Source of the DNA: Pseudokineococcus marinus
GTDB lineage: Bacteria > Actinomycetota > Actinomycetes > Actinomycetales > Quadrisphaeraceae
Direction of reading: 5' to 3'
NCBI RefSeq assembly: GCF_013004605.1
Contig: NZ_JABEMA010000010.1
Coordinates: 1 to 32,222 of the forward strand
Length of the DNA: 32,222 nt
Part shown: piece after piece, positions 6,347-29,215 of the stretch
How the letters are laid out: every line of letters starts with the position of its first letter
How positions within the stretch are numbered: the first letter of the stretch is position 1
The notes under the pieces: generated by a model
The model's database searches: none
The model's input: the letters and a program-made list of their open reading frames with translations, nothing else
What the model was told of the DNA's origin: nothing
Made by a program: the position numbers and the translations under genes

Positions 6347-6535
6347 GCCGCCCCCCCCTCCCGCCGGCGGCACCGACGGCCCGAAGGCCGCACCGGCAGC
6401 TGACTGCCTGCCGGACCACCTCGGCGCTCGATCGGGACTGCTGCACGAGCAGGCGACAGCTGGCCTGTGGCGTCGAGGCGCCGTCCCAGCAAGCGACCGT
6501 CTATCGGCACATCACTCCCCCACCCGCCGACCGAG

Positions 6536-6559
6536 TGTGGCCCACAGGGATATGTGGCC
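6536..6559. repeat. Short direct/inverted repeat beyond the transposition operon
   Basis: TGTGGCC occurs at 6536-6542 and again at 6553-6559, with CCACA between them, so that both TGTGG-C-CCACA and CCACA-gggata-TGTGG palindromes are formed. It lies about 40 bases past the end of the tniB-like gene, where a transposon end or transposase-binding site could be. I found no matching copy at the other side, so an end is not established. Confidence 0.25.
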
Positions 6560-6595
6560 GTAGATCACCTGTGCTCTGTGTCCGGGCACCTTCGC

Positions 6596-8962: not shown

Positions 8963-8975
8963 CGCTGTCTCCTTG

Positions 8976-9605: not shown

Positions 9606-9671
9606 CGGCCCAACGTACCGAAGGTCGTCTCTGTACGGAACCAACGGGACGCGATTTCGGGACCTACTTCT

Positions 9672-9693
9672 GGCACGGCGCGTCAGCCGTGCC
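9672..9693. repeat. Inverted repeat upstream of the resolvase gene
   Basis: GGCACGGC (9672-9679) and GCCGTGCC (9686-9693) are perfect 8-bp arms with a 6-base spacer. It lies 67 bases upstream of the resolvase start, in the place where the res recombination site of such transposons is found. It could equally be a hairpin terminator for leftward-entering transcription. Confidence 0.4.
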
Positions 9694-9723
9694 GCCTCGG
9701 CTCGAACAAGTCTTGGACCGCTC

Positions 9724-9747
9724 GTCCCACTTCCAAGGAAGTGGGAC
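9724..9747. repeat. 24-bp inverted repeat with a related copy at 18723
   Basis: Arms GTCCCACTTCC and GGAAGTGGGAC are perfect 11-bp complements around AA. It may be part of the resolvase recombination site or a transposase-binding site. A related sequence lies at 18723-18746, with 21 of 24 bases identical; the flanks are not alike. Confidence 0.5.
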
Positions 9748-9821
9748 AGGCTCAACTCTGTCTGACGCGTTGACCCAGCCTGGCCCTGTGTCTTCTGGTG
9801 CGGGAGTGGGAGCATCGCGTG

Positions 9822-9986
9822 ATGAGCCAGGACTCGAGGGAGTGCTCGTGCTGCGGGCGCAGCAAGCCGCGCCGCGCTCTTCATGCGTTGGACGGCGGGG
9901 CGTCGTACATCTGTCGGCCTTGCGGCCTATGGGTGGCCCTGAGGCTGAAGGGCGACACTGTCGGCGCGGGCTCGCACGAGCCGTGA
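9822..9986 (+). CDS. Small zinc-ribbon-like protein
   Basis: 54 residues from ATG 9822, with GGGAG ten bases upstream; GTG 9798 in the same frame is an alternative start. The protein has two CxxC pairs, CSCC near the N-terminus and CRPC about 20 residues later (GGASYICRPCGLWVALRLKG), the spacing of a treble-clef or zinc-ribbon metal site. No family is recognised. It converges on merA with 17 bases between the stops, and lies between the transposition operon and the mercury genes, so it may be cargo. The possibility of a chance frame is real for so short a gene, but the paired cysteines and ribosome site argue for coding. Confidence 0.5.
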   Translation: MSQDSRECSCCGRSKPRRALHALDGGASYICRPCGLWVALRLKGDTVGAGSHEP

Positions 9987-10003
9987 CGCGCCGGCTCGGG
10001 TGC

Positions 10004-11374: not shown

Positions 11375-11410
11375 GGCATTCTCCTCGCGCGCGCGGACAG
11401 GTCATCGGAC

Positions 11411-11440
11411 GGTAGACGTTCCAGTGCGGGGGAAGGTCAA
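11411..11440 (-). promoter_or_regulatory. MerR-type promoter/operator for merA
   Basis: On the minus strand, -35 TTGACC (11440-11435) and a -10-like TCTACC (11416-11411) are separated by 18 bases, or 19 if CTACCG is taken as the -10. The spacer holds the dyad GACCTTCC-cccgcact-GGAACGTC, 7 of 8 positions complementary. An over-long spacer with a central dyad is the MerR-family design, in which metal-bound regulator untwists DNA. merA starts about 37 bases downstream. Confidence 0.8.
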
Positions 11441-11455
11441 GGTCTACGGTTGACC

Positions 11456-11854
11456 ATGCGCATCGGAGAGCTGGCCGCCACGGCCGGCGTGACGACCAAG
11501 ACGATCCGCTACTACGAGAGCGCCGGCGTGCTGCCAGCGCCGGCTCGCCAAGCGTCGGGCTACCGGGAGTACGACCACCGGGCGGTCGACCGGCTGGCGT
11601 TCGTGAAGGCCGCGCAGGCGGCCGGGCTGACCCTGGCGGAGATCGTCGACGTCGTCTCTGCCCGCGAAAGCGCCGGCGCACCGTGCGCACACGTCGCGGC
11701 AGTGCTCGAACAGCACGCCCACGATCTTGAGCGGCGGATCGCCGAGCTCACGACTCTGTTAACCCAGGTGCGCCAGCTCAGCGCGCGGGCAAAGACTCTG
11801 CACCCTGACCAGTGCACCCCCGCCCAGGTCTGTCACCTCATCCCCACCGCCTGA
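11456..11854 (+). CDS. merR: MerR-family metal regulator, probably mercury-responsive
   Basis: 132 residues from ATG 11456. The N-terminus is a MerR helix-turn-helix (MRIGELAATAGVTTKTIRYY, ESAGVLP) with the wing GYREYD and second helix pair (LAFVKAAQAAGLTLAEIVDV). A long dimerisation helix follows. Cysteines are C77, C120 and C126. Hg-responsive MerR uses three cysteines at about 82, 117 and 126, the last two 8 residues apart, whereas here C120 and C126 have five residues between them. The metal specificity therefore rests mainly on its position, divergent from merA, with the operator between them. It is expected to repress without metal and activate merA with Hg(II). A different soft metal cannot be excluded from the binding loop alone. 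Confidence 0.85.
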   Translation: MRIGELAATAGVTTKTIRYYESAGVLPAPARQASGYREYDHRAVDRLAFVKAAQAAGLTLAEIVDVVSARESAGAPCAHVAAVLEQHAHDLERRIAELTTLLTQVRQLSARAKTLHPDQCTPAQVCHLIPTA

Positions 11855-12119
11855 AGCATCCGCCGTACCTGCGCGCGAACGCCGCAGCGCAGTCAGCCGC
11901 AAGGTGCACACATGATCACGGCGCCGCCGATGGCTGCCTCTGGGCCGTAGCCCCCCGTCGATGTCATGGGCCCAGCTCAACCGCCACATTGCGGCGACAG
12001 ATTCCCGCCACCCAGCGCTGAAAGCCACAGACCGAGCCGTCACCTCGACCCTCAGCGTCCCGATAGACCCGTCCGGATAGGAATCCCGCACAGGGGCGTC
12101 ATACGGCACACTCCCCGGC

Positions 12120-12743
12120 GTGAGCGGACTCAAGATCGGCTACGCCCGGGTTTCGACCACCGGCCAGGACCTCACCGGCCAGCGCAACGCCCTGCAGGCC
12201 CTCGGCGTCGAGCCCGACCGGGTCTACGTCGACCACGGCCTGACCGGCACCACCCGCGCCCGCCCCGGCCTACGCGAGGCCCTGGCCGCCTGCCGCGCCG
12301 GCGACACCCTCGTGGTCACCAAGCTCGACCGCCTCGCCCGCTCCCTACCCGACGCCCGCGACATCGCCGACGAGCTCACGACCCGTCAGGTCAAGCTCGC
12401 CCTCGGCTCCTCCGAGCACGACCCCACCGACCCCGTCGGGCGGCTCCTCTTCAACGTCCTGGCGATGGTCGCCGAGTTCGAGGCCGACCTCATCAAGATG
12501 CGCACCCGCGAAGGCCTCGCCGTCGCCCGCGCCGCCGGACGCCTGCGCGGCCGCAAGCCCAAGCTCAACCCCCGCCAGGAAGCCCACCTCGTCGAGCTCC
12601 ACCGGAGCGGCACCAAGACCGCCACCGACCTCGCCGAGCTCTTCGGCGTCGGCCGCTCCACCGTCTACCGCGCCCTCGAGCGCGCCAGCGCCCCGCCCCT
12701 CACACCCGCCCAGACGCAACAAGCCACTCAGGAGACGACGTGA
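12120..12743 (+). CDS. Second serine resolvase/invertase (Tn3-type)
   Basis: 207 residues from GTG 12120. The catalytic serine is S12 in KIGYARVSTTGQDLTGQRNA; the arginine-bearing VTKLDRLARSLPDARDIADE, the E-helix region (VGRLLFNVLAMVAEFEADLI) and a C-terminal helix-turn-helix (TDLAELFGVGRSTVYRAL) are all present. Length matches Tn3-family resolvases and DNA invertases. It is only distantly similar to the resolvase at 8976, so it belongs to a separate element. Its stop overlaps the start of the phosphotransferase gene by four bases (GTGA), so the two are translated together, an unusual coupling of recombinase and resistance-type cargo. The 265 bases upstream hold no gene I recognise and may contain its recombination site. 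Confidence 0.93.
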   Translation: MSGLKIGYARVSTTGQDLTGQRNALQALGVEPDRVYVDHGLTGTTRARPGLREALAACRAGDTLVVTKLDRLARSLPDARDIADELTTRQVKLALGSSEHDPTDPVGRLLFNVLAMVAEFEADLIKMRTREGLAVARAAGRLRGRKPKLNPRQEAHLVELHRSGTKTATDLAELFGVGRSTVYRALERASAPPLTPAQTQQATQETT

Positions 12744-13552
12744 CCACCACGCCCGACCCCACACCCGAGCCCAAGCCCGACACCGAGGAAGCGCTGGCCG
12801 GTGGCTTCAGCGGCCCCGTCGTCCGCGTGGGCGAGACCGTCCGACGCCCGACCGGCCCGTGGACACCGACCGTGCACGCCCTCCTAGACCACCTGCAGGC
12901 CACCGGCTTCACCCGCGCCCCACGTCCCCTCGGCCTCGACGACCACGACCGGGAGGTGCTCACCTACCTACCCGGCGAAGTGCCCCTGTACCCCCTGCCC
13001 GACTGGTGCTGGGACGACGACGTCCTCGCCCAGGTCGGGCGGGCACTGCGCGAGGTTCACGACGCCACCACCGGTCTACAGCTGCCTGAGGGCACCTGGA
13101 AGGTCGCCACCCACCAGCCCGCCGAGGTCATCTGCCACAACGACGTCGGCCCCTACAACACCGTCTTCGACGACGACCACCAGCTCACCGGCCTGATCGA
13201 CTGGGACTTCGCCTCCCCGGGCCCCCGCGCCTGGGACCTGGCCTACGCCGCCTACCGCTTCGTCCCCCTGGTCGCCGACACCAACCCCGACACCCCCGCC
13301 GTACCCGTCGCCGAGCAAGCCCGCCGCCTGGCCCTGCTCTGCCAGGCCTACGGACCCGACCTGCTCACCCCGGCCGAGGTCCTCGACCGGGCCCAAGAGC
13401 GCCTCGCCGAAGGCATCTCCCGCATCGTCGCCCTCCGGCGACACGACCCAGCCGAGCAGGAGCCCTACCGCCTGGGCCACCACCTGATCTACGCCCACGA
13501 CCTCGAGCACATCTGGGACCACCGCGACGCCCTCGCCTCTGCTGAACCCTGA
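12740..13552 (+). CDS. APH-fold phosphotransferase (aminoglycoside phosphotransferase family)
   Basis: 270 residues from GTG 12740, sharing GTGA with the resolvase stop. The catalytic loop is ICHNDVGPYNTVF, the family's HxDxxxxN motif with H133, D135 and N140, followed by the metal-binding LIDWDFASPGPRAWDLAYAA with D154 and D156. The N-terminal nucleotide-binding part is short and unusual, beginning FSGPVVRVGETVRRPTGPW, and lacks an obvious glycine-rich loop. APH-fold enzymes use ATP or GTP to phosphorylate aminoglycosides, macrolides, choline, homoserine or other hydroxyl compounds. The substrate cannot be read here, so resistance is possible but not shown. Translational coupling to a resolvase and proximity to mer genes favour a mobile cargo role. 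Confidence 0.85.
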   Translation: MTTTPDPTPEPKPDTEEALAGGFSGPVVRVGETVRRPTGPWTPTVHALLDHLQATGFTRAPRPLGLDDHDREVLTYLPGEVPLYPLPDWCWDDDVLAQVGRALREVHDATTGLQLPEGTWKVATHQPAEVICHNDVGPYNTVFDDDHQLTGLIDWDFASPGPRAWDLAYAAYRFVPLVADTNPDTPAVPVAEQARRLALLCQAYGPDLLTPAEVLDRAQERLAEGISRIVALRRHDPAEQEPYRLGHHLIYAHDLEHIWDHRDALASAEP

Positions 13553-13980
13553 GCCGCAGCCCCAGCCACCGTCCGCAACCCCCTGCAGGAGGTTCCGCGA
13601 CACAGCAGTTCCGGACACGAGTTGTGAACGCCACTCCCCCGGCGTGTCGCCCCGCCGGCGCGAGTGTCGCTCAAACGATCGAATGAGGTGTACGGGCGTG
13701 CGCTTGTGGGGCGTCGACAACTTCGCGCCGAGGCGGGCGAGCCGACTGGGGCCAGGGTCAGCACCCGCGCCCTGCGGACGACCGGGTCTGGACATCAACG
13801 AGCCGGTCCCGGGGGCCTTGGAGCCGCTAGGCCCGTCGGCCCGCCTCCTCTGCGCGGACGAGGCCACCCGCCGACTTCATGCCGAACACCCCCGTCACCC
13901 GACCGGCCCCTCCCCCTCACCGCTCATGCTATCTTTCGGGTAGTCGCTACCGCTCGGGTAGCCGGTCGAGAGGAGAAGTC
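13553..13980. other. 428-base region without a recognised gene
   Basis: It separates the phosphotransferase gene from the oxidoreductase-HxlR operon. Open frames exist but none shows a family pattern, conserved motif or ribosome site that I can support. The last 60 bases hold the promoter region and operator candidate for the gene at 13981. A boundary between mobile cargo and older sequence probably lies here; no terminal repeats were recognised. Confidence 0.5.
13939..13951. promoter_or_regulatory. Candidate HxlR operator
   Basis: GGTAG-TCG-CTACC is a perfect 5-bp-arm palindrome, followed by a further CGGGTAG at 13956-13962 (the first GGTAG is likewise preceded by TCG). It lies 30-42 bases upstream of the start at 13981, suitable for autoregulation by the HxlR protein encoded in the same operon. 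Confidence 0.45.
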
Positions 13981-14628
13981 ATGTCGAAGGTCGTCGTCAT
14001 CGGTGCCACCGGCTACGCGGGCGGGCGCATCAGCGCTGAGCTGCTCACCCGTGGGCACGAGGTCGTCGGGGTCTCACGCAGCGGGGCCGGGCTCGACGAG
14101 CGGGTGACCCCGGCGCAGGGGTCGGTGCACGACTCCGGTTTCCTGCGCGAGGTGACTGCGGGCGCCGACCACGTCGTGGTCGCGGTCAAGGCCGCCGCGG
14201 TCGAGCCCGGCGGCCCCACGCTGCTGGACGCCCTGCCGGGGCTGACTGAGGCCGCCGTGGCGCAGGGCGCGCGACTGGGCTTCGTCGGCGGTGCGGGTTC
14301 CCTCCTCGTGGCCGAGGGCGGGCCCACGCTGGTCTCCACCCCGGCCTTCCCCCAGGCCTACGCCCGGGAGGCCCTGGACCACGCCGCGGTCCTGGAGGCC
14401 CTGCGCCAGGCCCCCCGCGAGCTGGACTGGTTCTACGTCAGCCCCGCGGCGACCTACGGCGCCTGGAACGCCGGTGAGCGCACCGGCGCCTTCCGGGTCG
14501 GTGGTGACGTGCTGATGAGCGACGAGGCGGGCGTGTCGGCGATCTCCGGTGACGACTTCGCGATCGCCTACGTCGACGAGCTCGAGTCCGGCGCGCACCC
14601 GCGCCAGCGGATCAGCGTGGCCTACTGA
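13981..14628 (+). CDS. NAD(P)-binding oxidoreductase, NmrA/atypical SDR type
   Basis: 215 residues from ATG 13981 with GAGAGGAGA upstream. A Rossmann fold opens the protein: KVVVIGATGYAGGRISAELL, the TGxxGxxG-type dinucleotide motif with Y in place of one glycine-adjacent residue. The following strand (GHEVVGVSRSG) has an R/S end that suggests NADPH. Later landmarks are GADHVVVAVKAAAVEPGG, ARLGFVGGAGSLLVAEGG, and DWFYVSPAATYGAWNAGERT near the C-terminus. This is the pattern of atypical SDR/NmrA-like NAD(P)H-binding proteins, often quinone or flavin reductases or redox sensors. No classical YxxxK active site is evident. It is followed after 42 bases by an HxlR regulator, a very common pairing for reactive-electrophile or quinone stress. 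Confidence 0.85.
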   Translation: MSKVVVIGATGYAGGRISAELLTRGHEVVGVSRSGAGLDERVTPAQGSVHDSGFLREVTAGADHVVVAVKAAAVEPGGPTLLDALPGLTEAAVAQGARLGFVGGAGSLLVAEGGPTLVSTPAFPQAYAREALDHAAVLEALRQAPRELDWFYVSPAATYGAWNAGERTGAFRVGGDVLMSDEAGVSAISGDDFAIAYVDELESGAHPRQRISVAY

Positions 14629-14670
14629 GCGCCGAGACCACTCCGCGGCGCCACCAAGGCAGGAGACCCC

Positions 14671-15099
14671 ATGGACGACCAGCAGCAGCTGGGTGAGCCC
14701 ACGTTCGACCCCTACCACCCTGACTGCCCGAGCCGGCAGATGGTCGACCGGATCGGCGACAAGTGGACGGTGCTGGTCGTCGGCGTCCTGTCCGAAGGGC
14801 CGGCGCGCTACCGCGACCTGTCCGGCCGCGTCGCGGGCATCTCTCCGAAGATGCTGTCCCAGACTCTCAAAGGCCTCGAGCGCGACGGGCTGATCACCCG
14901 CCGGGCCTACGCCGAGGTCCCTCCCCGCGTGGAGTACGAGCTGACCCCCGCCGGGGCGAGCCTGCGCCCGGTCCTGCTGGACCTGGAGCGCTGGGCCCGC
15001 GAGCACATGCCCGAGGTCCTGCGCGCCCGGGCCGCCCACGACGCCGGCCAGGGCTCCCCCGACCACACCCCCGGCCAGGTCCCTGACCGGGTCACGTGA
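14671..15099 (+). CDS. HxlR-family winged-helix regulator
   Basis: 142 residues from ATG 14671, with AGGAG upstream. The HxlR signature is clear: CPSRQMVDRIGDKWTVLVVG, then LSEGPARYRDLSGRVAGISP, KMLSQTLKGLERDGLITRR and the wing PPRVEYELTPAGASLRPVLL. One cysteine sits just before the first helix (C18, DCPSRQM), in the position used as a thiol sensor in several family members such as HypR and QorR-type regulators. That makes a redox or electrophile response likely, by analogy. It probably controls its own operon (13981-15756) through the palindrome at 13939. The C-terminal tail after about residue 120 is a low-complexity extension. Confidence 0.92.
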   Translation: MDDQQQLGEPTFDPYHPDCPSRQMVDRIGDKWTVLVVGVLSEGPARYRDLSGRVAGISPKMLSQTLKGLERDGLITRRAYAEVPPRVEYELTPAGASLRPVLLDLERWAREHMPEVLRARAAHDAGQGSPDHTPGQVPDRVT

Positions 15100-15144
15100 T
15101 CAGGACCCTGACCGGGGCCCTGACAGCTGAGGAGAAGAACCGCC

Positions 15145-18753: not shown

Positions 18754-19031
18754 CGGGCTCGACGACCACCGACTCCGAGGCGCGACACGCGCAGATGTCG
18801 ACAGCTGTCCCTTAATGGGTGTCCGTTGCTCCGATGCCCGAGGCACCGGACGTAGTGGCACACGGTTTCGGACGCCCGACCCGGCCCCGGCGGCGGGGTG
18901 TGTCACAAACCATCGTTTGCGGCCGGCGACGTGTTGTCAAGAGGAGTCAGCCAAGAGCAGTGCCGCCACGCCCCTACCGTCACGAAAAGGACTCATCAGC
19001 GCGACTGCCGCCCGTAGGCTCGTTGCTCACC

Positions 19032-20309
19032 ATGACCTTCACGCCCGCCACCACCATCAGCATCGCGACCCTCATCTTCTTGGCAGGAGGGCTCGTCACC
19101 TATCTGGTTACGTCTTATAGGAGACGGCGGAGAGGTGCCTCCAAGCACACGGAAATTGCGATTGTCGCCGTCACTGCTGTCTTCCTCGGCTGCACGGTGT
19201 CATACGTACTTTGGGGCACAAGCGTCAGAGATCACCGTGAAGCCGTACGCACCGGGGCGCTCGCGGCAGGGGCGATCGGGGCTCTTTACAGCCTTTTGAT
19301 CAGCGAACGAAGGCGCGGTATTGAAGAAAGGCGGCAGGAAGTAGAGCAGCGACGTCACGACCTCGAACACGAACGCACACTTTTGGACGGGCACCGCGTC
19401 GCAACCGAGAGGTTTGCGAAGGCAATCGAACTCCTCGGGCACGAGACAGCCCAGGTGCGAGTCGCGGCGATGCACTCGCTGATCGAACTATCTCGTAGCC
19501 GCGAGGAAATGCTTCAGTCTGTCACGAGTGTTATATGCGCCTACTTGCGTCGCCCTTTCATGCCCCCCCTGACGGACTCGGGGGATAAAATCTACGATGA
19601 GGCTCTGAATGGCGCGCAGCGCGAAGAACTAACGGTCCGCAGGGCCGCTCAACGGCTTCTCAACCAAGCACTACAAGAGGGCGCTACCGGCAAGGCGCTT
19701 GACGTGGATTTGACTGGCGCCACTGTTGACCGACTCGATTTCGGCGGTAAGCATCTTGGGCAGCTTCTGTGTCACGACATGACAGTCCTCGGGACCGTCG
19801 ATCTCTCTGACGCGATAGTTGAAGACACGGCATCTTTCAGCCGCTCTCACTTTTTGGGTGATTTTAATGCCCGAAGCGCGACCTTCAAGGGCAACGTATG
19901 GTTCTCCTTGTCACGATTTATGCGAAAGTTGAACGCCGACGGGGCGCGCATTACTGGGGCAGTCACCTTCACCAGAAGCACCTGCAAGGGTCCGGTCTCA
20001 CTCCAAGGCATTACCTGCGAGGGGTACTTCGGCATGTCGCGAGTCAATGCCGCCTCCGGCATAGTGCTCGATAAAGCGCGCTTGCTAGGACATGCAGACT
20101 TCAGCTCGGCCAACATCAGGCATCGAACTGCACTCAATTCTGTTACTCTCGACGGACCGTCACTCAACATGCAAAAAGCGAAGTGCCAACACTTCGAATT
20201 CCACAAGATTGCCGTGGGTAGCGACTGTTCTATCAAGCCGCCCCACGGCTGGCTAGCAGGTGGACCCTCGGGTCGACCCTTCGAGCGCGACAAGGCAGCA
20301 GTTAAGTAG
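19032..20309 (+). CDS. Membrane pentapeptide-repeat protein, lower GC
   Basis: 425 residues from ATG 19032; the ribosome site is weak and in-frame GTG codons lie further upstream. Hydrophobic segments are at about 8-28, 43-62 and 72-90. They are followed by a charged coiled coil (SERRRGIEERRQEVEQRRHD) and the helical motif ATERFAKAIELLGHETAQVR, VAAMHSLIELSRSREEMLQ, typical of the membrane-anchored pentapeptide family in actinobacteria. From about residue 218 come degenerate A(D/N)LxX repeats, for example LTGATVDRLDFGG, VDLSDAIVEDTASFS and FSSANIRHRTAL, expected to form a right-handed beta-helix. The function of the family is not established. Codon use is much more AT-tolerant (many codons such as GAA, TTT and ATA) than the neighbours, pointing to recent transfer from a lower-GC donor. 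Confidence 0.85.
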   Translation: MTFTPATTISIATLIFLAGGLVTYLVTSYRRRRRGASKHTEIAIVAVTAVFLGCTVSYVLWGTSVRDHREAVRTGALAAGAIGALYSLLISERRRGIEERRQEVEQRRHDLEHERTLLDGHRVATERFAKAIELLGHETAQVRVAAMHSLIELSRSREEMLQSVTSVICAYLRRPFMPPLTDSGDKIYDEALNGAQREELTVRRAAQRLLNQALQEGATGKALDVDLTGATVDRLDFGGKHLGQLLCHDMTVLGTVDLSDAIVEDTASFSRSHFLGDFNARSATFKGNVWFSLSRFMRKLNADGARITGAVTFTRSTCKGPVSLQGITCEGYFGMSRVNAASGIVLDKARLLGHADFSSANIRHRTALNSVTLDGPSLNMQKAKCQHFEFHKIAVGSDCSIKPPHGWLAGGPSGRPFERDKAAVK

Positions 20310-20436
20310 CCCCGTAAGGCTAGCGACTCCTCGAAGGTGTCCTCGAAAGTGAGGAACATGAATAGGTCGCCAGCGCCCCCGAGATGGCCATTCGGATACG
20401 AGCGGGCTTGAGCGGTCACCCTCACAGTCCGCGGGC

Positions 20437-20625
20437 GTGACCGCCTGGGCACCTCCTCGGCGCAAGCAGCCTTTTCATCCAGGGGTCGCGACCGCCTGGA
20501 GGACGGCACGCTCGGCCGGGCATCTGCGGCTGATGGTCCACGCCCACAGGCCTTGCTTCAGCTCGGCGTGCAGGTCGCCGGGATGCGCCGGCCATAGCCC
20601 ACATGCGCGGCCGCGGCCACCTGCG
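20437..20625 (+). pseudogene. Frameshifted relic of the small Cys protein at 30660
   Basis: From GTG 20437 the frame gives PFHPGVATAWRTARSAG, which aligns with LFHPGVADAGKAARAAG in the intact gene at 30660. After a 4-base deletion the match continues in another frame as ALLQLGVQVAGMRRP and then a stop, aligning with SVQLGVADETPRRP. The upstream bases also match (AGTCCGCGGGC before the start here, GGTCCGCGGGC there). The cysteines of the intact protein are lost. It is a decayed duplicate; expression is unlikely. Together with 30660 it brackets the defence block at 20669-30573. Confidence 0.65.
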
Positions 20626-20668: not shown

Positions 20669-22486
20669 TCACTGAGATGCAGCCACTCTGCCCGCTCTGA
20701 TCCGCATGCCCTGCTTCAAGACTCCCTCAAGGAGGGTGAAGGGAAGGGCGGCCAGGGTAAGCGCTTCGGGCGAGGTGAGGTTCTCGTAGTCGCGCTCTCG
20801 CCAGGGCGTCTGGTGCTCAAAGCTCCAGGATCGAATGACGGCTTCGACGAAGACCTGCGCGTACCAGTCGTGGACCTGCTCGCGGGCGATCTGCTGCACC
20901 TCCTCCCCGCCTCCGTAGTCGGCCGCCAGGCGGGTGATGGCGTCCTGGACGACTCGGAAGCTCCTATTGGCGAAGATGACGTTGCTGGTGCGGACGTACT
21001 CGGCCGCACGGTCGGCGGGGCGGTCGTCGGCTTCGTCGAAATCGACCCAAACGATGTCGGGCAAGTCGCGGTCGGGGTGGACGCGGGTGGCTGGTGTCCC
21101 GTCGGTGTCGGCGAGGCCGGCGTAGTCACTGCGCTTGGTACCGGCGCCACCGGCTCCAGTCGTGCCGGTGCCGCCGACCGGTCGGGTGCCGTCGCCGCGG
21201 GTGCCGGTGGTGGTCTCGGTGCGGTCTCCGGCGCCCGAGGGCGCGGTGCCGCTGGCCCTCTCCTGGCCGGTGGGGGTGGGACGCCAGGCGGTGACGCGCC
21301 ACAGGTGCTTATAGCGCTGGACGCGTTCTTTGACGGTGCTGGCGTCGGAGCCGTCGGTGGCGTCGCGCACGGCAGCTTCCAGTCGTGCGATCTGCTCGGG
21401 TGGCTTGGCACGGAATTGGGCGGCCCAGTCTTCCCAGGGCAGCGGGGTTCCGCCGATGCGCAAAGTGTTGCGCGAGAGGTCGGCTGCGACGGGGCCGGTG
21501 GGCTCGAGGTAGAGGGCGATCCGCTTGGCGGCGAAGAGGATGCCGAAGTTCTGGGTGCGCACGCGGTGGGTGTTGCCCGTGGTGACTTCGTAGAGCTCGT
21601 CCTGGAAGAGGGCGCCGCTCTGCCCACGGGTGAGGTAGACGTCCTCGTTGCCGGAGGTCTTCTCGGGGAGGATCCACCAGTGGGCCCGCGCCCCGTCGAG
21701 GTCGACCTGCCCGGAAGCTTCGGCGTTCTGGTCTAGCCACCACTGCTGTCCGTTGCAGGTCCTCAGACGCGTGCCGGAGGCCTGCTGGGTGCTGTAGTCG
21801 ATGGGCTCGTCGTGAGGCCACTTGGCGTGGTCGGCGGGCCATTCCCGGACCCGGACGCGGACGCCGTCGGGGAAGCGGAAGAAGCGCCGGTTGAGGTACT
21901 GCACGAGCCAGCGCATCGTCTTCGGGGCGGCCTCGGGCGGGGTGATCGTCGACCGGTCCTCGTCGTCCCCGAGCAGGACGACCATGGTGCCGTGCCCGTC
22001 GTCGATGACGCCGGGGCGCATCTTGTCGATGCCGGTGAGGTAGGGGCGGGCGCCACCTTCGGGGTGGTCGAAGCGCTCGAGGCCCCACTGGTCGCCTTCC
22101 TGGCGGAAGTGGACCAGCGCCCCGCTGCCCTCGCGCCAGGAGGCGTAGACGACACCGGCGGGATTGCGGGCGCCAGCGGTGACCTTGGCCCCGATGCCGA
22201 AGTTGCCGTCGACGCCCTGCTGTCGGCCGGAGACGAACAGGGTGTTGATGTAGCGCACGAGGTCCGGGGAGGTCATGCCCTCGCCGTTGTCGATGCACGC
22301 CAGGCGCCAGACGCCGCGGGTGCGGACGGTGTGCCAGTCGACGTCCCACAGGACCTCGCTGGCGCCGGCCTGCAGCGCGTTGGTGGTGATCTCGCGGTAC
22401 TGCTGCAGGGGGTGGGCGTCCTTGGCGAGCAGCTCGAAGGCGATGGTGGGGTTGCGGACGTCCATGGACTCCAGGTCGGGGATCAC
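20669..22486 (-). CDS. MORC-like GHKL ATPase
   Basis: 605 residues from GTG 22486, which overlaps the DGQHR stop (GTGA). All GHKL motifs are present: N-box REITTNALQAGA with E32 and N36, G1 motif CIDNGEGM (D66-M71), G2 motif GNFGIGAKVTAGARNP (G97, G99, K101), and a GHGTMVVLLG strand for the last motif. The GxFGxGxK form resembles MORC/Hsp90-type proteins rather than the GFRGEAL of MutL. A middle region with KTMRWLVQYLNRRFFRFPDG follows, then a Gly/Thr-rich linker around 400-445 and a C-terminal domain (PDIVWVDFDEADDRPADRAA, YVRTSNVIFANRSFRVVQDA). MutL/MORC-type GHKL ATPases are known in restriction-modification neighbourhoods and are thought to clamp or remodel DNA on ATP-driven dimerisation. 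A role as the DNA-clamping subunit of this locus is inference. Confidence 0.88.
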   Translation of the reverse strand: MIPDLESMDVRNPTIAFELLAKDAHPLQQYREITTNALQAGASEVLWDVDWHTVRTRGVWRLACIDNGEGMTSPDLVRYINTLFVSGRQQGVDGNFGIGAKVTAGARNPAGVVYASWREGSGALVHFRQEGDQWGLERFDHPEGGARPYLTGIDKMRPGVIDDGHGTMVVLLGDDEDRSTITPPEAAPKTMRWLVQYLNRRFFRFPDGVRVRVREWPADHAKWPHDEPIDYSTQQASGTRLRTCNGQQWWLDQNAEASGQVDLDGARAHWWILPEKTSGNEDVYLTRGQSGALFQDELYEVTTGNTHRVRTQNFGILFAAKRIALYLEPTGPVAADLSRNTLRIGGTPLPWEDWAAQFRAKPPEQIARLEAAVRDATDGSDASTVKERVQRYKHLWRVTAWRPTPTGQERASGTAPSGAGDRTETTTGTRGDGTRPVGGTGTTGAGGAGTKRSDYAGLADTDGTPATRVHPDRDLPDIVWVDFDEADDRPADRAAEYVRTSNVIFANRSFRVVQDAITRLAADYGGGEEVQQIAREQVHDWYAQVFVEAVIRSWSFEHQTPWRERDYENLTSPEALTLAALPFTLLEGVLKQGMRIRAGRVAASQ

Positions 22487-23778
22487 CGCTTGGTCCCGTT
22501 CTGGGTGGGCAGCTCGGTGCCGGCCTGGGCCCATCCGGTGAGCCAGGTCACCAGTCGGCGCAGGTCCTGGGAGCGGGAGGAGGGGGCCATGGCGCCCTCC
22601 TCGAAGACGCCGCTGGCGAATAGGGGGTTGGTCTTGGTGACCGGGGCGTCCATGTGCGGGGCGAGGCGGGTGAAGAAGTCCTCGGCGCGCTGGGTGCCGG
22701 CGCGGTCCAGGGAGGGCATGTCGTCGTCGACGTCGATGGCGAGCTCGTAGAAGACGCCGGCGAGCACGCGCAGGATGGTTGGGGAGGCCAGCAGGCTGTC
22801 GCGGCGCAGGTCGACGGGGCTGGTTTCGTCGGCGGCGACGTCGCTGAGGCGGGGGAAGGCCTGCACGAGGGTGTCGAGGTAGGCCTGGACGAGCTGGGTG
22901 ACCAGCTGGTCCTTGTAGGCGGCCTCGCGGCGGACGTTCATCCGCCCGGAGATGCCCAGGGCGACGTGCTTGACGATGTCGGACAGGTTGCGGGCCGACA
23001 GCAGCGCGGTGTTGTTGCGCTGGGTGCGGTCGCGCTCGAAGTCGATGCGGCCGGCGAGCAGCTCGTGGGTCTCGGCGAGCTCGCGGGTGACGCGGTTGAT
23101 GACGCTGACGCTGTCGAACTCGACCGTCTTGGACTTGGTGATGCCCTTGGCGTTGTTCGTGATGTCGGCGAAGGCCTGCTTGTGCTCGGCGACGGTGATG
23201 CCCTCGACCACCTGCAGGGTGACGTACTCGGTCTGCAGGCGCTGCTCGAGCGCCTCGAGCTCGGCGATCTTGCCGGTGCGCACGGAGACCCCGACGTCGT
23301 CGCCGACGGACCGAGAGGCGCGCAGCTGCTCGCGCTGTTCCTTGAGCTCGCGGGCGATGTCGCGGGCGGCGATCGTCCAGCCGAGGATCCGGTGCTGCCC
23401 GTCGAGGATGTCCAGGACGTTGACCGCGTTGTGCGGCAGGGCGAGCACGCCGATCTCGACGCCGAAGGCGCGTGCCTTGACCTCGAAGGCCTGGCCGAGC
23501 TCGGCGTTGGTGTCCAGGAGCAGGGGCGGGGCCGTCCACTTGGGGTTGTTGCGCCAGTAGGCGGCGAACTTCTGCGCGTGGTTGAGGTCGACCCGGCGGT
23601 TGCCCTCGAACGGCTGCTCGGGGTCGGGGATGGGCAGGTGGGTGGGGATCAGGTGCAGCGGCAGGGCGATGTCGAAGTAGGAGCGCGCGCCCTGGCCGTA
23701 CCGGGTGGCGAGCACCTCCAGCTTGGCTCGGTAGCCGGAGAGGTTGGTGAAGTCGAGCGGGTCGGTCGTCGTGGTCAT
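22483..23778 (-). CDS. DGQHR-domain protein (DndB/DpdB-like)
   Basis: 431 residues from ATG 23778 with a strong AGGAGG ribosome site. The motif DGQHR is at residues 126-130 in NVLDILDGQHRILGW. It is preceded by PLHLIPTHLPIPDPEQPFEG and NRRVDLNHAQKFAAYWRNNP, and followed by a coiled-coil segment (REQLRASRSVGDD, ELEALEQRLQTEYVTLQVV) and FADITNNAKGITKSKTVEFD. The DGQHR family includes DndB, the regulator of phosphorothioate modification, and DpdB of deazaguanine DNA modification; the fold is ParB-like and some members hydrolyse nucleotides. No dnd or dpd enzyme genes are present here. It is first in a two-gene minus-strand operon with the GHKL ATPase and divergent from the methyltransferase. I infer a DNA-binding, sensing or regulatory part of a defence system; no direct function can be read. 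Confidence 0.85.
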   Translation of the reverse strand: MTTTTDPLDFTNLSGYRAKLEVLATRYGQGARSYFDIALPLHLIPTHLPIPDPEQPFEGNRRVDLNHAQKFAAYWRNNPKWTAPPLLLDTNAELGQAFEVKARAFGVEIGVLALPHNAVNVLDILDGQHRILGWTIAARDIARELKEQREQLRASRSVGDDVGVSVRTGKIAELEALEQRLQTEYVTLQVVEGITVAEHKQAFADITNNAKGITKSKTVEFDSVSVINRVTRELAETHELLAGRIDFERDRTQRNNTALLSARNLSDIVKHVALGISGRMNVRREAAYKDQLVTQLVQAYLDTLVQAFPRLSDVAADETSPVDLRRDSLLASPTILRVLAGVFYELAIDVDDDMPSLDRAGTQRAEDFFTRLAPHMDAPVTKTNPLFASGVFEEGAMAPSSRSQDLRRLVTWLTGWAQAGTELPTQNGTKR

Positions 23779-23866
23779 GGGTCCTCCTGTCGGGTAGGTC
23801 GTCAAGGTGGCTACCTCGATAACAAGGAGACTAGCTCCAGGTTAGGCGGCTTGGCAACGCCTTAGC

Positions 23867-23898
23867 CGCACTAGTCGCCTGATTGGGTGACTAGTGCG
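23867..23898. promoter_or_regulatory. Large inverted repeat between the divergent defence operons
   Basis: CGCACTAGTC (23867-23876) and GACTAGTGCG (23889-23898) are perfect 10-bp complementary arms with a 12-base spacer, the half-site centres 22 bp apart, about two helical turns. Further CTAG-bearing elements lie nearby (GGAGACTAGCTCC near 23827, GCTAGG near 23898), and an imperfect TTAGGCG/CGCCTTA dyad lies between them. CTAG is rare in high-GC genomes, so the cluster is striking. Placement between the DGQHR start (23778) and the methyltransferase start (24018) suggests an operator that balances both operons. Confidence 0.7.
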
Positions 23899-24017
23899 CT
23901 AGGAAGCTGCCTGGGGACGCCGGCGCGGTCCACCTCCCGGGGTCGTACGGGGCACGTACGGTCAGGTGCTGTCTGGTCGGTGTCGGTCCGCCGACGCAGT
24001 GGGGTGGAGGAGGCGTG

Positions 24018-25193
24018 GTGAGCGGCAGCGTGACGGCGTTGTTCGCCGGGATCGGTGGGCTCGAGCAGGGGCTGCACGAGCACGGCTGGGAGACCGAGCT
24101 GTTCTGCGAGATCGACCGCGGCGCCCAGGTCGTCCTTGAGGACCGCTTCCCCGGCCGGGACGTCGTCGACGACGTCGCGAAGCTGCGGGCGCTGCCGGCC
24201 GGAACGGAGCTGGTGACGGCTGGGTTCCCCTGTCAGGACCTGTCCCAGGCCGGGCGCACGGCCGGCATCGGTGGTGACCGCTCCGGGCTGGTGGACCACG
24301 TCTTCCGGCTGGTGACCCGCAAGAAGGGGCCCCGGTGGTTGCTGCTGGAAAACGTCCCGTTCATGCTGCAGCTGGACCGGGGGAAGGCGATGCGGCACCT
24401 GACGACCGAACTCGAGGACCGGGGGTACTCCTGGGCGTATCGGGTCGTGGACGCACGCGCGTTCGGGCGCCCGCAGCGCCGGTGGCGGGTGCTGATGCTG
24501 GCCTCGCGGACCGAGGACCCCACCGAGGTGCTGTTCGGTCAGGACGCCGGCGTCCCCGAGACGGGCGATCCGGCCGAGCACGCGTGCGGCTTCTACTGGA
24601 CCGAGGGCCTGCGGGGGCTGGGCTGGGCCGTCGATGCCGTCCCGACCCTCAAGGGCGGCTCCTCGGTCGGGATCGCCTCTCCCCCGGCGGTGCGGATGCC
24701 GACGGCCGAGGCGGGCCGGCGGATCGTGACGCCGGGTATTACCGACGCCGAGCGGCTGCAGGGCTTCGACCCGGACTGGACCCGCGCGGTCTTGGACCAC
24801 CCCGAGCTGCGCCCGGGGCACCGGTGGAAGCTCGTCGGCAACGCCGTCTCGGCGCTGATGTCTGAGTGGGTCGGCTCCCGCCTGGCCGACCCCCAGCCCT
24901 ACGACGGCACCCACGATCGGGCGCTGCAGCCCGGAGACGCGTGGCCGACCGCCGCCTGGGCCGGCAAGGACGGCGTCGCCCACCGCGCGGATGTCTCGAT
25001 GTGGCCGGTGCAGGCTCCCTACGAGCACCTTGAGACCTTCCTCGAGGACACCAAGCCCCTCTCGCCGCGGGCGACGGCCGGATTCCTCAAGCGCGCCCAG
25101 ACCGGGTCGCTGCGGTTCGTACCGGGCTTCCTCGATGACGTCGAGCAGCACCTGGCCGACATGGGCGGCTGGCCCTCCCGGGTGATGTCTTGA
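24018..25193 (+). CDS. C5-cytosine DNA methyltransferase
   Basis: 391 residues from GTG 24018; GTG 24015 is only one base past AGGAGG, so 24018 is preferred. Motif I is TALFAGIGGLEQGLHEHG (AdoMet binding). Motif IV is TAGFPCQDLSQAGRTAGI with nucleophile C72. Motif VI is LLLENVPFML with E111. Motif VIII is FGRPQRRWRVLML (Q153-R155), and motif X is KLVGNAVSALMSEW with G274. The target-recognition region between VIII and X is about 120 residues. A C-terminal extension of about 110 residues follows motif X (WPTAAWAGKDGVAHRADVSM, LSPRATAGFLKRAQTGSLRF). The enzyme puts a methyl group on carbon 5 of cytosine in a specific sequence, unknown here. It starts the rightward operon with a candidate nuclease (TTGA overlap) and vsr, as expected for a restriction-modification locus. 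Confidence 0.95.
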   Translation: MSGSVTALFAGIGGLEQGLHEHGWETELFCEIDRGAQVVLEDRFPGRDVVDDVAKLRALPAGTELVTAGFPCQDLSQAGRTAGIGGDRSGLVDHVFRLVTRKKGPRWLLLENVPFMLQLDRGKAMRHLTTELEDRGYSWAYRVVDARAFGRPQRRWRVLMLASRTEDPTEVLFGQDAGVPETGDPAEHACGFYWTEGLRGLGWAVDAVPTLKGGSSVGIASPPAVRMPTAEAGRRIVTPGITDAERLQGFDPDWTRAVLDHPELRPGHRWKLVGNAVSALMSEWVGSRLADPQPYDGTHDRALQPGDAWPTAAWAGKDGVAHRADVSMWPVQAPYEHLETFLEDTKPLSPRATAGFLKRAQTGSLRFVPGFLDDVEQHLADMGGWPSRVMS

Positions 25194-26050
25194 ACGAGCA
25201 CCCCCTACGAGCGGCACTCGATCGCGCCGATCCACGCCCCGAACCGCGCGCCCAGCAGGCCGACAAGAAGAACTACGCCCAGCGACTGTCCAACCACCTG
25301 GCCCAGGTCGTCGCCGACGAGCTGCGCCCTCGCTACCCCGCCGTCACGCCGACGGCGACCGGCCAGGGGCAGGAGGCCAGCGTCGGCGTCGACCGAGGTC
25401 GCAAGCGCCTGGACGTTAAGGTCACCGACCCGACGCTGGGCCTGCTGGTGTGCGTGTCGATCAAGACGTACAACTTCCAGGACTACAGCCCCAAGAAGAA
25501 CGAGCTCGGACGTTGGACGAAGAACATCGTGCGCAACGACCATGAACTGCGTGGCGAGGCCATGGTGCTGCACCAGCGCCAGCCCTACAGCGTGCTGGTC
25601 GCCGTGCTCTTCGAGCCCTACACGACGTGCGAGGACGGCGATCCGACCAGCTCCAACGACAAGGGCAAGTCTTCTTTCGCCCACCACGTGACGACGCTGG
25701 CCAAGCGAGCAGGTCGCGGTCGGCGCACCGTGTACGGCGGTGCGGACAAGTCCTGGGTGGAGCTCGGAGCCGAGGACACCCGCTACGACTTGTTCGAGCG
25801 GGTCTTCATCGGCCTCTACGAGCCGGACGGCCCGGACCGCGGCGCCGTGCGCTTCTTCGACGTCGAGCAGCCAGCCCCCCGCAACGGCAGGCCTGCGGCG
25901 AAGTACACGTGCTCCTTCGCCGAGTTCGTCGACCAGGTCGACGAGGAGGTCCGGCGACGCAACCGCACTGCCCCCACCTGGGCCGACCCCGATGCCAGCG
26001 ACGAGTCCAGCGACCCCGAGGGGCTCGGTGACGTCGACGTCGAGAACTGA
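25190..26050 (+). CDS. Candidate PD-(D/E)XK-like restriction endonuclease
   Basis: 286 residues from TTG 25190, overlapping the methyltransferase stop by four bases. I do not recognise a named family with certainty. A helical N-terminus (KKNYAQRLSNHLAQVVADEL) leads to KRLDVKVTDPTLGLLVCVSI and KT, in which D75 and K92 with hydrophobic strands between them fit the PD-(D/E)XK core; the middle acid of the motif is S90 here, a known type of variation but one that weakens the call. Further conserved-looking parts are NIVRNDHELRGEAMVLHQRQ, PYSVLVAVLFEP and DLFERVFIGLYEPDGPDRGA. A nuclease directly after a C5 methyltransferase and before Vsr is the common order for a type II restriction enzyme, so restriction is inferred largely from context. 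The acidic tail is probably disordered. Confidence 0.7.
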   Translation: MNEHPLRAALDRADPRPEPRAQQADKKNYAQRLSNHLAQVVADELRPRYPAVTPTATGQGQEASVGVDRGRKRLDVKVTDPTLGLLVCVSIKTYNFQDYSPKKNELGRWTKNIVRNDHELRGEAMVLHQRQPYSVLVAVLFEPYTTCEDGDPTSSNDKGKSSFAHHVTTLAKRAGRGRRTVYGGADKSWVELGAEDTRYDLFERVFIGLYEPDGPDRGAVRFFDVEQPAPRNGRPAAKYTCSFAEFVDQVDEEVRRRNRTAPTWADPDASDESSDPEGLGDVDVEN

Positions 26051-26489
26051 CGCCGGCCCCTCCCCCTCGGTGCGTGCTACTGCGGCACCGGCGGCCTCGG
26101 ACGCGGCGACGCTGGCGCGGATGCGCCGGCAGGGACGCCGGGACACCAAGCCGGAGGTCGCGCTGCGCCGGGAGCTGCACCGTCGGGGCCGGCGGTTCTT
26201 CGTCGACCGTGCCCCGTTGCCCAAGATGCGCCGGCGCGCGGACGTCGTCTTCCCTCGCCGGCGGGTCGCGGTCTACGTCGACGGGTGCTTCTGGCATGCC
26301 TGCCCGGTGCATGGCACCCGGCCGAAGCGGAACACGCAGTGGTGGGCGAACAAGCTCGACGGCAACGTCGCCCGTGACCGGGACACCGACGCCCGCCTCG
26401 AGGCCGCAGGTTGGACGGTGGTTCGGGTCTGGGAGCACGAGGACGCCGCGGCGGCTGCCGATGCCGTCGAGGCGGCCCTGGATCGATGA
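26028..26489 (+). CDS. vsr: Very short patch repair endonuclease
   Basis: 153 residues from GTG 26028, chosen because GAGGGG lies four bases before it; GTG 26070 would give 139 residues and no ribosome site. It overlaps the preceding gene by 23 bases. Vsr features are ARMRRQGRRDTKPEVALRRE, then RRADVVFPRRRVAVYVDGCF, WHACPVHG, and NTQWWANKLDGNVARDRDTD with WTVVRVWEHE near the end. D72 corresponds to the metal-binding aspartate (D51 of the E. coli enzyme) and W89-H90 to the W-H pair that intercalates and acts in catalysis; C87 and C92 fit the zinc site. Vsr nicks 5' to the T of T:G mismatches that arise when 5-methylcytosine deaminates, so it protects sites made mutable by the upstream methyltransferase. 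The E. coli H64 position is D85 here, as in many actinobacterial homologues. Confidence 0.94.
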   Translation: MTSTSRTDAGPSPSVRATAAPAASDAATLARMRRQGRRDTKPEVALRRELHRRGRRFFVDRAPLPKMRRRADVVFPRRRVAVYVDGCFWHACPVHGTRPKRNTQWWANKLDGNVARDRDTDARLEAAGWTVVRVWEHEDAAAAADAVEAALDR

Positions 26490-27302: not shown

Positions 27303-28067
27303 ATGAGCAGGTGGGACAGCGCAGCGATGAAGCGCCTCGGGCAGGTGGCCGCGGACCTGCACGAAGTGGGCGTCGTGACGCAGGTCGCGACCCTGGCGCG
27401 GTCGACCTGGTCGACCAACCTCGAGCGGCACGAGCCGGAGCTCGGCGACACGCCCCTGCTGCTGGGCCTTCAGTGCGCGGAAAATCTCGCCCAGCGGGTG
27501 CACCGCCACTACCGGGCCCTGCGCCCCGCACCCGGCTCCCACGGGCCGGCCAGCGGGACGACTGCGGTGACGGTGTCTTTCGTGGAACGGGCGCTGATCG
27601 TCAAGGCCGCCGGGGTAGAGTTGCAGCTGCGCAAGGCCCCGGCCGGCGGTGGGCTCGTGCCCGACTGGGCGGCGATGTCCCACGCCGACGGGGTCCACCG
27701 GCTCGCGGCCGCTGACGCCAACAGCCTCGCCTACCGCCCCGAGGCCTCCGACCAAGACGGGCGACCGTCGACGCTGCCGAGCGAGGACGCATTGTGGCCC
27801 CTGGGTGACGCCGGCGCCCTGCGCCAGGTGAGCCTCGTGTGGGCCGGCACCGAGGACGGCGCCCGCACCTCAGGGTGGCTCGGCTTCCCCAGCAGCGGTG
27901 ACATCCCCTGGTTCGCCGTGCAGCCGCTGTGGTGGGACGAAGCAGGGCAGGACCCGGGCTCCCGACGCCGCGAGTCCTCACGTACTTCCGACGGCTTCGC
28001 CGACCGGCCTGCACCCACGCCGGTCCTACGTCCGCGCACCCAGCCCCGTGAGAGCGAAGGAGCATGA
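27303..28067 (+). CDS. Unknown protein coupled to an XRE-ImmA gene
   Basis: 254 residues from ATG 27303; ATG 27327 is an alternative. The stop overlaps the next start (ATGA). Visible pieces are a helical N-terminus (AAMKRLGQVAADLHEVGVVT), NLERHEPELGDTPLLLGLQC and AENLAQRVHRHYRAL, then a strand-rich middle (TTAVTVSFVERALIVKAAGV, ELQLRKAP) and a tryptophan-rich SGDIPWFAVQPLWWDEAG before a disordered, proline- and arginine-rich tail. No catalytic motif, signal peptide or membrane segment is seen. I do not recognise the family. Position directly before an XRE/M78 peptidase gene is the arrangement of several toxin-antitoxin or phage-defence pairs, in which the partner of the XRE-M78 protein is the effector. 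That role is inference from context. Confidence 0.75.
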   Translation: MSRWDSAAMKRLGQVAADLHEVGVVTQVATLARSTWSTNLERHEPELGDTPLLLGLQCAENLAQRVHRHYRALRPAPGSHGPASGTTAVTVSFVERALIVKAAGVELQLRKAPAGGGLVPDWAAMSHADGVHRLAAADANSLAYRPEASDQDGRPSTLPSEDALWPLGDAGALRQVSLVWAGTEDGARTSGWLGFPSSGDIPWFAVQPLWWDEAGQDPGSRRRESSRTSDGFADRPAPTPVLRPRTQPRESEGA

Positions 28068-29215
28068 GAGAGGACACGCCATCCCTGCTGGCCGCCAGAC
28101 GTCGACGCCGTCAAGGCACGATCACCGACTTCGACGGTGGCCGCCTCGCCCTGGCACGACGCCTGGCCCGACTCCCGCGCGCCCACCTGGCCCGGGACAT
28201 CCACGTCACGCCGGCGACCATCACCCAGCTCGAGCGCGGCGCCATCCGTCCCACCGCTCCGCTGCTGGCCGACCTCGCCGGCCGCCTCGACATGCCCGAG
28301 GACTTCTTCCGCCACGGGCGCCCTGTCCCGGCGCTGCCGGCGACAGCGGCGCACTTCCGGTCCCTGCGGACGACCCCGGCGCTCTCACGGGACCAGGCGC
28401 TGGCCTTCGCCGAGCTCGCCATGGACGTCGTCGACGCGGTCGAGCAGTACGTCGACCTGCCCACCGCGGACGTCCCCGCCCTCGAACTGCCCGACTCCCC
28501 CACCCGCACCGACATCGCCGAGGCCGCAGCCCGCACGCGCGCGGTCCTCGGGGTACCCGACGGCCCGGTCGCGCACGTCGTACGACTGCTCGAGGCGCAC
28601 GGCGTCGTCGTGCTGCGCCTGCCATCCGACGTCGCCGGGCGCCCTTTGGACCGCGACGTCGACGCGTTCTCCACATCGGCGACCGCTCGGCCGCTGGTGC
28701 TGCTCTCCCCGATGAAGGACGATAAGGCCCGTAGCCGCTTCGACGCGGCACACGAGCTCGGGCACCTCGTCATGCACCACGATGACGCCGAAGCCGGCAA
28801 CAAGGTCGTCGAAGGCCAGGCGCAGACCTTTGCGGCAGAGTTCTTGATGCCCGCAGACCAGGTCGTCGACGACCTGCCCAGGCGTGTCGACTGGGAGCAA
28901 TTGCACGCCGCGAAACGACACTGGGGAACCAGTCTTCGTGCATTGATTTACCGGGCCCGCACCCTGGGGGTCCTATCAGAGACCGCCTACAAGCGCGCGA
29001 ACATCACCCTGGCCGGTCAGGGCTATCCCGAGCCCGGGCCCCTCGGCCCACCGGAGTCACCGACGCTTCTCGAGGCGGCGACCGACCTACTGCGCGAGCA
29101 CGGCACCACGCTCGACCAGCTCGCGCAAGCGACCCGGGTCCCTCTCGCCCAGGTCACCGAAGTCATCATCGCCGGCAGCGATCCGAAACCACGCCTGCGC
29201 ATCTCCCCGCACTGA
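28064..29215 (+). CDS. XRE helix-turn-helix protein with ImmA/IrrE metallopeptidase domain
   Basis: 383 residues from ATG 28064, with GAAGGAG upstream. Residues about 25-85 are an XRE-type HTH: LARRLARLPRAHLARDIHVT, PATITQLERGAIRPTAPLLA, DLAGRLDMPEDFF. The M78 (DUF955) peptidase follows, with the zinc motif HELGH at 230-234 in RFDAAHELGHLVMHHDDAEA and the typical VEGQAQTFAAEFLMPADQV after it. Known relatives include ImmA, which cuts the ICEBs1 repressor, and IrrE/PprI, which cuts a DNA-damage repressor in Deinococcus. The HTH-M78 fusion is common on mobile elements as a regulator or antitoxin. The C-terminal 90 residues include a helix-turn-helix-like TTLDQLAQATRVPLAQVTEV. It is co-translated with 27303. 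The motif is intact, so proteolysis is possible. Confidence 0.92.
   Translation: MREDTPSLLAARRRRRQGTITDFDGGRLALARRLARLPRAHLARDIHVTPATITQLERGAIRPTAPLLADLAGRLDMPEDFFRHGRPVPALPATAAHFRSLRTTPALSRDQALAFAELAMDVVDAVEQYVDLPTADVPALELPDSPTRTDIAEAAARTRAVLGVPDGPVAHVVRLLEAHGVVVLRLPSDVAGRPLDRDVDAFSTSATARPLVLLSPMKDDKARSRFDAAHELGHLVMHHDDAEAGNKVVEGQAQTFAAEFLMPADQVVDDLPRRVDWEQLHAAKRHWGTSLRALIYRARTLGVLSETAYKRANITLAGQGYPEPGPLGPPESPTLLEAATDLLREHGTTLDQLAQATRVPLAQVTEVIIAGSDPKPRLRISPH

What the first reader, a model, noticed from the sequence alone, without database searches (positions are those of the whole stretch)
20669..26489. Divergent five-gene module: MORC-like ATPase and DGQHR protein facing a C5 methyltransferase, candidate nuclease and Vsr
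Seen: two tightly overlapping operons (4-nt overlaps, and a 23-nt overlap into vsr) back to back around a strong inverted repeat. Known: C5 methyltransferase plus Vsr is a standard pair; DGQHR proteins act with phosphorothioate (DndB) and deazaguanine (DpdB) DNA modification; MutL/MORC-type GHKL ATPases were described in restriction-modification neighbourhoods by Iyer, Abhiman and Aravind. Inferred: here DGQHR and GHKL subunits work with a methylation-based system, perhaps sensing unmethylated phage DNA and clamping it for the nuclease. I know no named system with this exact set.
Basis: partly seen in the sequence, partly recalled or inferred. Interest (0 to 1): 0.87.

Follow-up and report, generated by a model that had tools for sequence, protein, structure and literature searches.

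The report
Restriction system beside unrelated ATPase pair
The five genes are real, but three of them form an ordinary DNA restriction-modification system with a repair helper, and the two genes facing it belong to families that live apart from it in nearly every other genome, so this is most likely two defence-type modules side by side rather than one new machine.

Summary
The five genes are confirmed, with 4-nt overlaps in both operons and a unique inverted repeat between them; two start codons need correction. The "one methylation-sensing module" reading is not supported by co-occurrence.

The right-hand trio (C5 methyltransferase, nuclease candidate, Vsr) recurs complete in another actinobacterial genome (67/73/70% identity, same order) and rearranged in a second. 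Neither has a DGQHR or GHKL relative nearby. The nuclease's other relatives sit directly behind N6-methyltransferases, so it is best read as the restriction enzyme of a Type II R-M system with a V gene.

The GHKL protein has the GHKL-S5 fold but lacks the published MORC motif. Its 9 closest relatives (31-39% identity) lie beside none of the other four genes. The DGQHR protein is DndB-like; its 34 full-length relatives also lack the other four, and 25 of the 30 viral ones lie next to a phage terminase.

Most likely: two neighbouring modules in a defence island, with a Rosmer pair next door. The DGQHR-GHKL pair was seen only here; its function is unknown. A weaker lead survives: on two plasmids the same methyltransferase family with Vsr faces a different GHKL operon (published HEF_HK type), so a functional link cannot be excluded.

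The parts
20669..22486 (-). GHKL (Bergerat-fold) ATPase with S5-like domain, 605 aa; ATP-binding motifs RE(x)3N, DNGEGM, GIGAK and GT intact
   Evidence: Pfam HATPase_c_3 4.9e-4 and HATPase_c 3.1e-3, both below gathering; invariant motifs in 14-row alignment; AF2 model matches GyrB/ParE, MORC3, MutL, Hsp90 with Foldseek probability 1.00
22483..23778 (-). DGQHR/DndB-family protein, 431 aa from ATG 23778 (ORF open to 23805); DGQHR motif at residues 135-139 of the longer ORF
   Evidence: Pfam DndB 9.5e-29; TIGR03187 DGQHR 8.8e-22, over cut-off; start by Shine-Dalgarno and homologue starts
22483..22486 (-). 4-nt GTGA overlap of the DGQHR stop and GHKL start
   Evidence: sequence
23867..23898 (.). 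inverted repeat in the shared divergent intergenic region, possible operator; only copy in genome
24015..25193 (+). DNA cytosine-C5 methyltransferase, 392 aa, motifs FAGIGG, PCQ, ENV, QRR
   Evidence: Pfam PF00145 1.7e-40; PADLOC MTase_II PDLC03324 1.3e-140 full length; motifs
25190..26050 (+). putative Type II restriction endonuclease, 286 aa; invariant K72-x2-D75 ... S90-x-K92 and E123/H128
   Evidence: homologues sit directly behind N6 methyltransferases and behind C5 methyltransferases; alignment; fold not confirmed
26028..26489 (+). Vsr mismatch endonuclease; likely start GTG 26070 (139 aa)
   Evidence: TIGR00632 vsr 4.3e-32, over cut-off; conserved D-x2-F, GCFWH-x-C, N-x2-RD and WEHE

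Best explanation
Two adjacent modules in a chromosomal defence island. Module 1 (24015-26489) is a Type II restriction-modification system with its own repair gene: the methyltransferase marks host sites with 5-methylcytosine, the 286-aa protein cuts the same sites when unmethylated, and Vsr nicks T:G mismatches left when 5-methylcytosine deaminates. Module 2 (20669-23778) is a translationally coupled DGQHR (DndB-like) and GHKL ATPase pair that works independently of module 1; most likely the ATP-dependent GHKL dimer acts as a DNA clamp or switch for a DNA-binding, possibly NTP-hydrolysing, DGQHR partner. Shown: gene families, gene order, overlaps, GHKL-S5 fold, recurrence of the trio without the pair. 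Inferred: the restriction activity of the nuclease candidate, and everything about what the pair does.
For: The trio recurs without the pair: L056 has methyltransferase 67%, nuclease 73% and Vsr 70% in the same order in an ordinary neighbourhood; L057 has 53/33/57%, with Vsr convergent and a ribonucleotide reductase gene next door; Nocardia L016 has the methyltransferase (68%) plus Vsr (74%) only. Nuclease relatives are second genes in N6-methyltransferase operons on four plasmids examined, overlapping by 14 nt. Nine GHKL relatives (31-39%) have no DGQHR, methyltransferase, nuclease or Vsr homologue in the DNA held around them, up to 10 kb a side. Full-length DGQHR relatives (30 viral, 2 plasmid, L054, L111) have none of the other four. 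In 396 actinobacterial genomes the GHKL and DGQHR searches did not match the two trio-bearing genomes. A Rosmer pair at 27303-29215 marks a defence island.
Against: The pair as a pair was found only here, so its independence is inferred from relatives of each part at about 30-39% identity; a closer subfamily that does travel with the trio could be missed. The divergent operons share one intergenic region and a unique palindrome. Two plasmids carry the same methyltransferase family with Vsr divergent to another GHKL operon, so a functional link is not absurd. Only two other complete trios were found. Several neighbourhoods are truncated by contig ends. The low-confidence AF2 model of the nuclease leaves its fold untested.
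Confidence: 0.6

Rival explanations
1. One integrated five-gene system: DGQHR and GHKL sense unmethylated DNA, clamp it and hand it to the nuclease.
For: Divergent, tightly packed operons with a shared control region. Prokaryotic MORC/paraMORC neighbourhoods with cytosine methylases and Vsr are published (PMC2292703). The same methyltransferase family with Vsr faces a HATPase_c_3 + HATPase_c protein on two plasmids.
Against: No other locus has the set; each half occurs alone. The trio already has all parts of a working R-M system. The GHKL proteins in the two plasmid cases are unrelated to this one by BLAST.
Confidence: 0.18
2. The pair is a regulator or safety device of the R-M system: a GHKL-DGQHR switch acting at the shared promoter palindrome, in the way HEF_HK/Response_reg_2 genes have been proposed to be associated with C5 methyltransferases.
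For: Unique palindrome in the shared intergenic region. Parallel architecture on L022 and L023 (PMC8011034). The palindrome is absent upstream of the methyltransferase in L056 and L016, which have no pair.
Against: No DNA-binding domain was detected in either protein. Absence of the palindrome elsewhere fits but does not prove this; other regulators could bind it.
Confidence: 0.15
3. The DGQHR gene is a phage-derived gene captured in the island and the GHKL is a solitary ATPase; their adjacency and overlap are coincidental and they do not work together.
For: 25 of 30 full-length viral DGQHR relatives lie beside a terminase. GHKL relatives lie beside none of the other genes.
Against: The 4-nt GTGA overlap and intact motifs in both genes argue for selection as an operon. 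DGQHR also occurs in a Zorya/Mrr/GmrSD island.
Confidence: 0.07

Closest known systems
Type II C5 restriction-modification system with V gene (Dcm-type methyltransferase, restriction enzyme, Vsr)
   Same: Methyltransferase motifs, complete Vsr motif set, nuclease candidate of a family found behind methyltransferases; same order in a second genome
   Different: The nuclease family has no Pfam, NCBIfam or PADLOC name; recognition sequence unknown
MORC / paraMORC GHKL ATPases in R-M neighbourhoods (Iyer, Abhiman and Aravind 2008, PMC2292703)
   Same: GHKL-S5 fold, intact ATP motifs, here next to a C5 methyltransferase and Vsr
   Different: MORC motif GhXhhpXXRhl absent; relatives not linked to R-M genes; no helicase in the locus
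HEF_HK / Response_reg_2 system beside C5 methyltransferases (PMC8011034)
   Same: GHKL operon facing a C5 methyltransferase and Vsr; seen with this methyltransferase family on L022 and L023
   Different: Different GHKL family, a single HATPase region, and a DGQHR partner instead of a response-regulator-like protein
DndB / DGQHR proteins (phosphorothioate system; DGQHR domain similar to the ParB/Srx-like GmrS, PMC4619093)
   Same: DndB Pfam hit 9.5e-29 and DGQHR motif
   Different: Far below the DndB equivalog cut-off (30 against 328 bits); no other dnd gene among the locus proteins examined; nearest relatives in phage and plasmid contexts

Membership tests
Type II R-M system with V gene | C5 methyltransferase with catalytic motifs | tested here: met
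   Pfam PF00145 1.7e-40; PCQ, ENV, QRR present
Type II R-M system with V gene | Cognate restriction endonuclease | tested here: inconclusive
   Linked behind C5 and N6 methyltransferases in several genomes and invariant K-x2-D...S-x-K residues, but no family hit, AF2 model too poor (pLDDT 54), no significant PDB match
Type II R-M system with V gene | Vsr endonuclease | tested here: met
   TIGR00632 110.9 bits against cut-off 97.85; conserved motifs
Type II R-M system with V gene | Site-specific modification and cleavage | not testable with these tools
   needs methylome and cleavage assays
MORC family ATPase | GHKL plus S5 module with ATP motifs | tested here: met
MORC family ATPase | MORC-specific motif GhXhhpXXRhl in S5 | tested here: not met
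   absent in window and all 9 relatives scanned; window has GILFAAKRIA with the R one residue early
DndB (phosphorothioate system) | Equivalog score over cut-off | tested here: not met
   30.1 bits against 328
DndB (phosphorothioate system) | dndCDE genes nearby | tested here: not met
   no dnd hit over cut-off among the other locus and neighbour proteins scanned; the rest of the genome was not searched for dndC-E
HEF_HK / Response_reg_2 system | HATPase_c_3 plus C-terminal HATPase_c/HEF_HK and a Response_reg_2 partner | tested here: not met
   window GHKL has one HATPase region and a DGQHR partner; no BLAST similarity to the L022 GHKL

The most novel reading that the evidence does not exclude
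The DGQHR-GHKL pair is a functional two-gene partner of the C5 R-M system (or a two-gene defence system of its own) in which a DndB-like protein and a gyrase/MORC-type ATPase act together, a combination for which no record was found here.
Probability: 0.25. Interest if true: 0.65.

Novelty: new member of a known kind. Interest (0 to 1): 0.36.

Why it matters
It separates a tempting five-gene story into parts that can be tested apart. The R-M+V trio is an ordinary defence system with an unnamed restriction-enzyme family. The pair would be of interest if functional, because DGQHR proteins are otherwise known from phosphorothioate and deazaguanine DNA modification and GHKL ATPases from MutL/MORC-type DNA clamps; a coupled pair would make the role of either family in defence directly testable.

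Tried and rejected
Close-relative scans with single proteins found nothing, so profiles were used. Reading the GHKL as a MORC was rejected on the missing motif. Reading the DGQHR protein as a Dnd component was rejected on score and context. Structure of the nuclease: AF2 with 5 sequences gave pLDDT 54 and Foldseek found nothing significant, so no fold claim is made. PDB sequence searches for the DGQHR and nuclease profiles gave no meaningful hit. No Rfam family and no tRNA in the window. No consensus sigma-70 promoter or terminator in the intergenic region. Literature search for DGQHR with methyltransferase and Vsr found no paper. No named phage carries a close DGQHR relative.

Full report
Observation. 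The five genes exist as described. In the left operon, on the minus strand, DGQHR (ORF 22483-23805) runs into GHKL (20669-22486) with a GTGA overlap. In the right operon, on the plus strand, the C5 methyltransferase (24015-25193) overlaps the nuclease candidate (25190-26050) by 4 nt, and Vsr follows to 26489. Two starts need correction. DGQHR most likely begins at ATG 23778, which has AGGAGG upstream and where both plasmid homologues begin. Vsr may begin at GTG 26070: the homologues are conserved only from about residue 23, so the 23-nt overlap is not certain. The inverted repeat at 23867-23898 is real and unique in the genome; by surrogates it is above chance but not extraordinary (11 of 2000).

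The trio. The methyltransferase matches a PADLOC Type II methyltransferase model over its full length (1.3e-140) and Vsr passes the NCBIfam cut-off. The nuclease candidate matches no family, but its relatives are placed like restriction enzymes. On plasmids of Mycobacterium, Cryobacterium, Bradyrhizobium and Pseudonocardia they overlap the end of an N6 methyltransferase gene by 14 nt. In actinobacterial genome G278 the whole trio recurs in order at 67, 73 and 70% identity. In G075 it recurs at 53, 33 and 57% with Vsr convergent. Invariant residues K72, D75, S90, K92, E123 and H128 would fit a PD-(D/E)XK-like site with Ser in the usual acidic position, but the structure prediction was too poor to test this. 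The restriction role is therefore well supported by context and unproven by fold.

The pair. The GHKL protein keeps the ATP-binding motifs across 14 aligned members. Its model, though of low mean confidence (pLDDT 52), matches GyrB/ParE, MORC, MutL and Hsp90 structures with probability 1.00. It lacks the motif that Iyer and colleagues give as defining MORC (PMC2292703). Its nine closest relatives come from Verrucomicrobia, Eisenbacteria, Blastocatellia, Planctomycetota, Burkholderiales and other Betaproteobacteria, and an actinobacterial MAG. None has DGQHR, methyltransferase, nuclease or Vsr homologues in the DNA held around it, up to 10 kb a side; one (L027) lies next to a HamA gene followed by a helicase. 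More distant plasmid relatives (25-30% over the aligned part) sit in other contexts. The DGQHR protein is DndB-family (9.5e-29) but far below the DndB equivalog cut-off. Its relatives are lone plasmid genes, a gene in a Zorya/Mrr/GmrSD island with a different 812-aa partner, and 30 full-length viral-contig genes, 25 of which lie next to a terminase large subunit. In a tree the window protein is a long branch of its own.

Co-occurrence. In profile searches of 396 actinobacterial genomes and order-level searches, no other genome was found with a member of both halves at full length. The genome draws were reported at the same size, 396, for all three profile searches and are taken to be the same set. 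The pair itself, DGQHR next to GHKL, was found only in this window.

What keeps the linked reading alive. Ten relatives of the methyltransferase on plasmids were inspected. On Mycolicibacterium L022 and Ornithinimicrobium L023 the methyltransferase with Vsr lies divergent to an operon with a HATPase_c_3 + HATPase_c protein and a response-regulator-like protein. This resembles the published HEF_HK/Response_reg_2 systems (PMC8011034), although the partner gave no Pfam hit. The GHKL family is different from the window's. So 'a GHKL operon facing this methyltransferase' happens more than once, with unrelated GHKL proteins, which could be convergence on a useful partner or simple clustering in defence islands.

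Mechanism. For the trio: host cytosine methylation, cleavage of unmethylated DNA, and Vsr nicking at T:G mismatches from deaminated 5-methylcytosine (established for such systems; inferred here). For the pair: the 4-nt overlap suggests coupled translation and a complex. GHKL-S5 proteins dimerise on ATP and act as DNA clamps or gates (established knowledge of GyrB, MutL and MORC). The DGQHR domain resembles the ParB/Srx-like GmrS (PMC4619093), which suggests NTP and DNA binding. That the two act together on DNA is inference.

Verdict. An R-M+V system, a new member of a known kind, beside an unexplained two-gene pair, in a defence island with a Rosmer-type RmrT-RmrA pair. The five-gene system is possible but not supported.

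Noticed in passing
window 27303-29215 (+): Rosmer-type defence pair: RmrT (PDLC03941, 3.9e-31) and RmrA (PDLC03955, 5e-145) with a 4-nt ATGA overlap.
   Followed up: partly
L064-L093 (viral contigs): A DndB/DGQHR-family gene lies within about 3 kb of the terminase large subunit in 25 of 30 viral contigs with full-length relatives, usually just upstream; no close relative was found in named phages.
   Followed up: partly
L111 (G532:C18), 149-15100: DGQHR gene with an 812-aa partner between Zorya type I genes (ZorA, ZorB, ZorD) and Mrr plus GmrSD_N genes.
   Followed up: partly
L022 and L023, about 2.3-7.6 kb: Methyltransferase of the same family with Vsr (fused on L022) divergent to a paraMORC/HEF_HK-like GHKL and a response-regulator-like gene; the L023 copies are broken into pieces.
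   Followed up: partly
L027, 1327-6328: A relative of the window GHKL is directly upstream of a HamA gene followed by a DEAD-box helicase gene, as in Hachiman.
   Followed up: no
window 19000-20500: G+C drops to about 58% over a pentapeptide-repeat gene (18819-20309), against about 70% around it: probable island boundary or recent insertion.
   Followed up: no
window 23831-23902: Four of the window's 16 CTAG sites fall in the intergenic region between the operons, within and beside the inverted repeat.
   Followed up: partly
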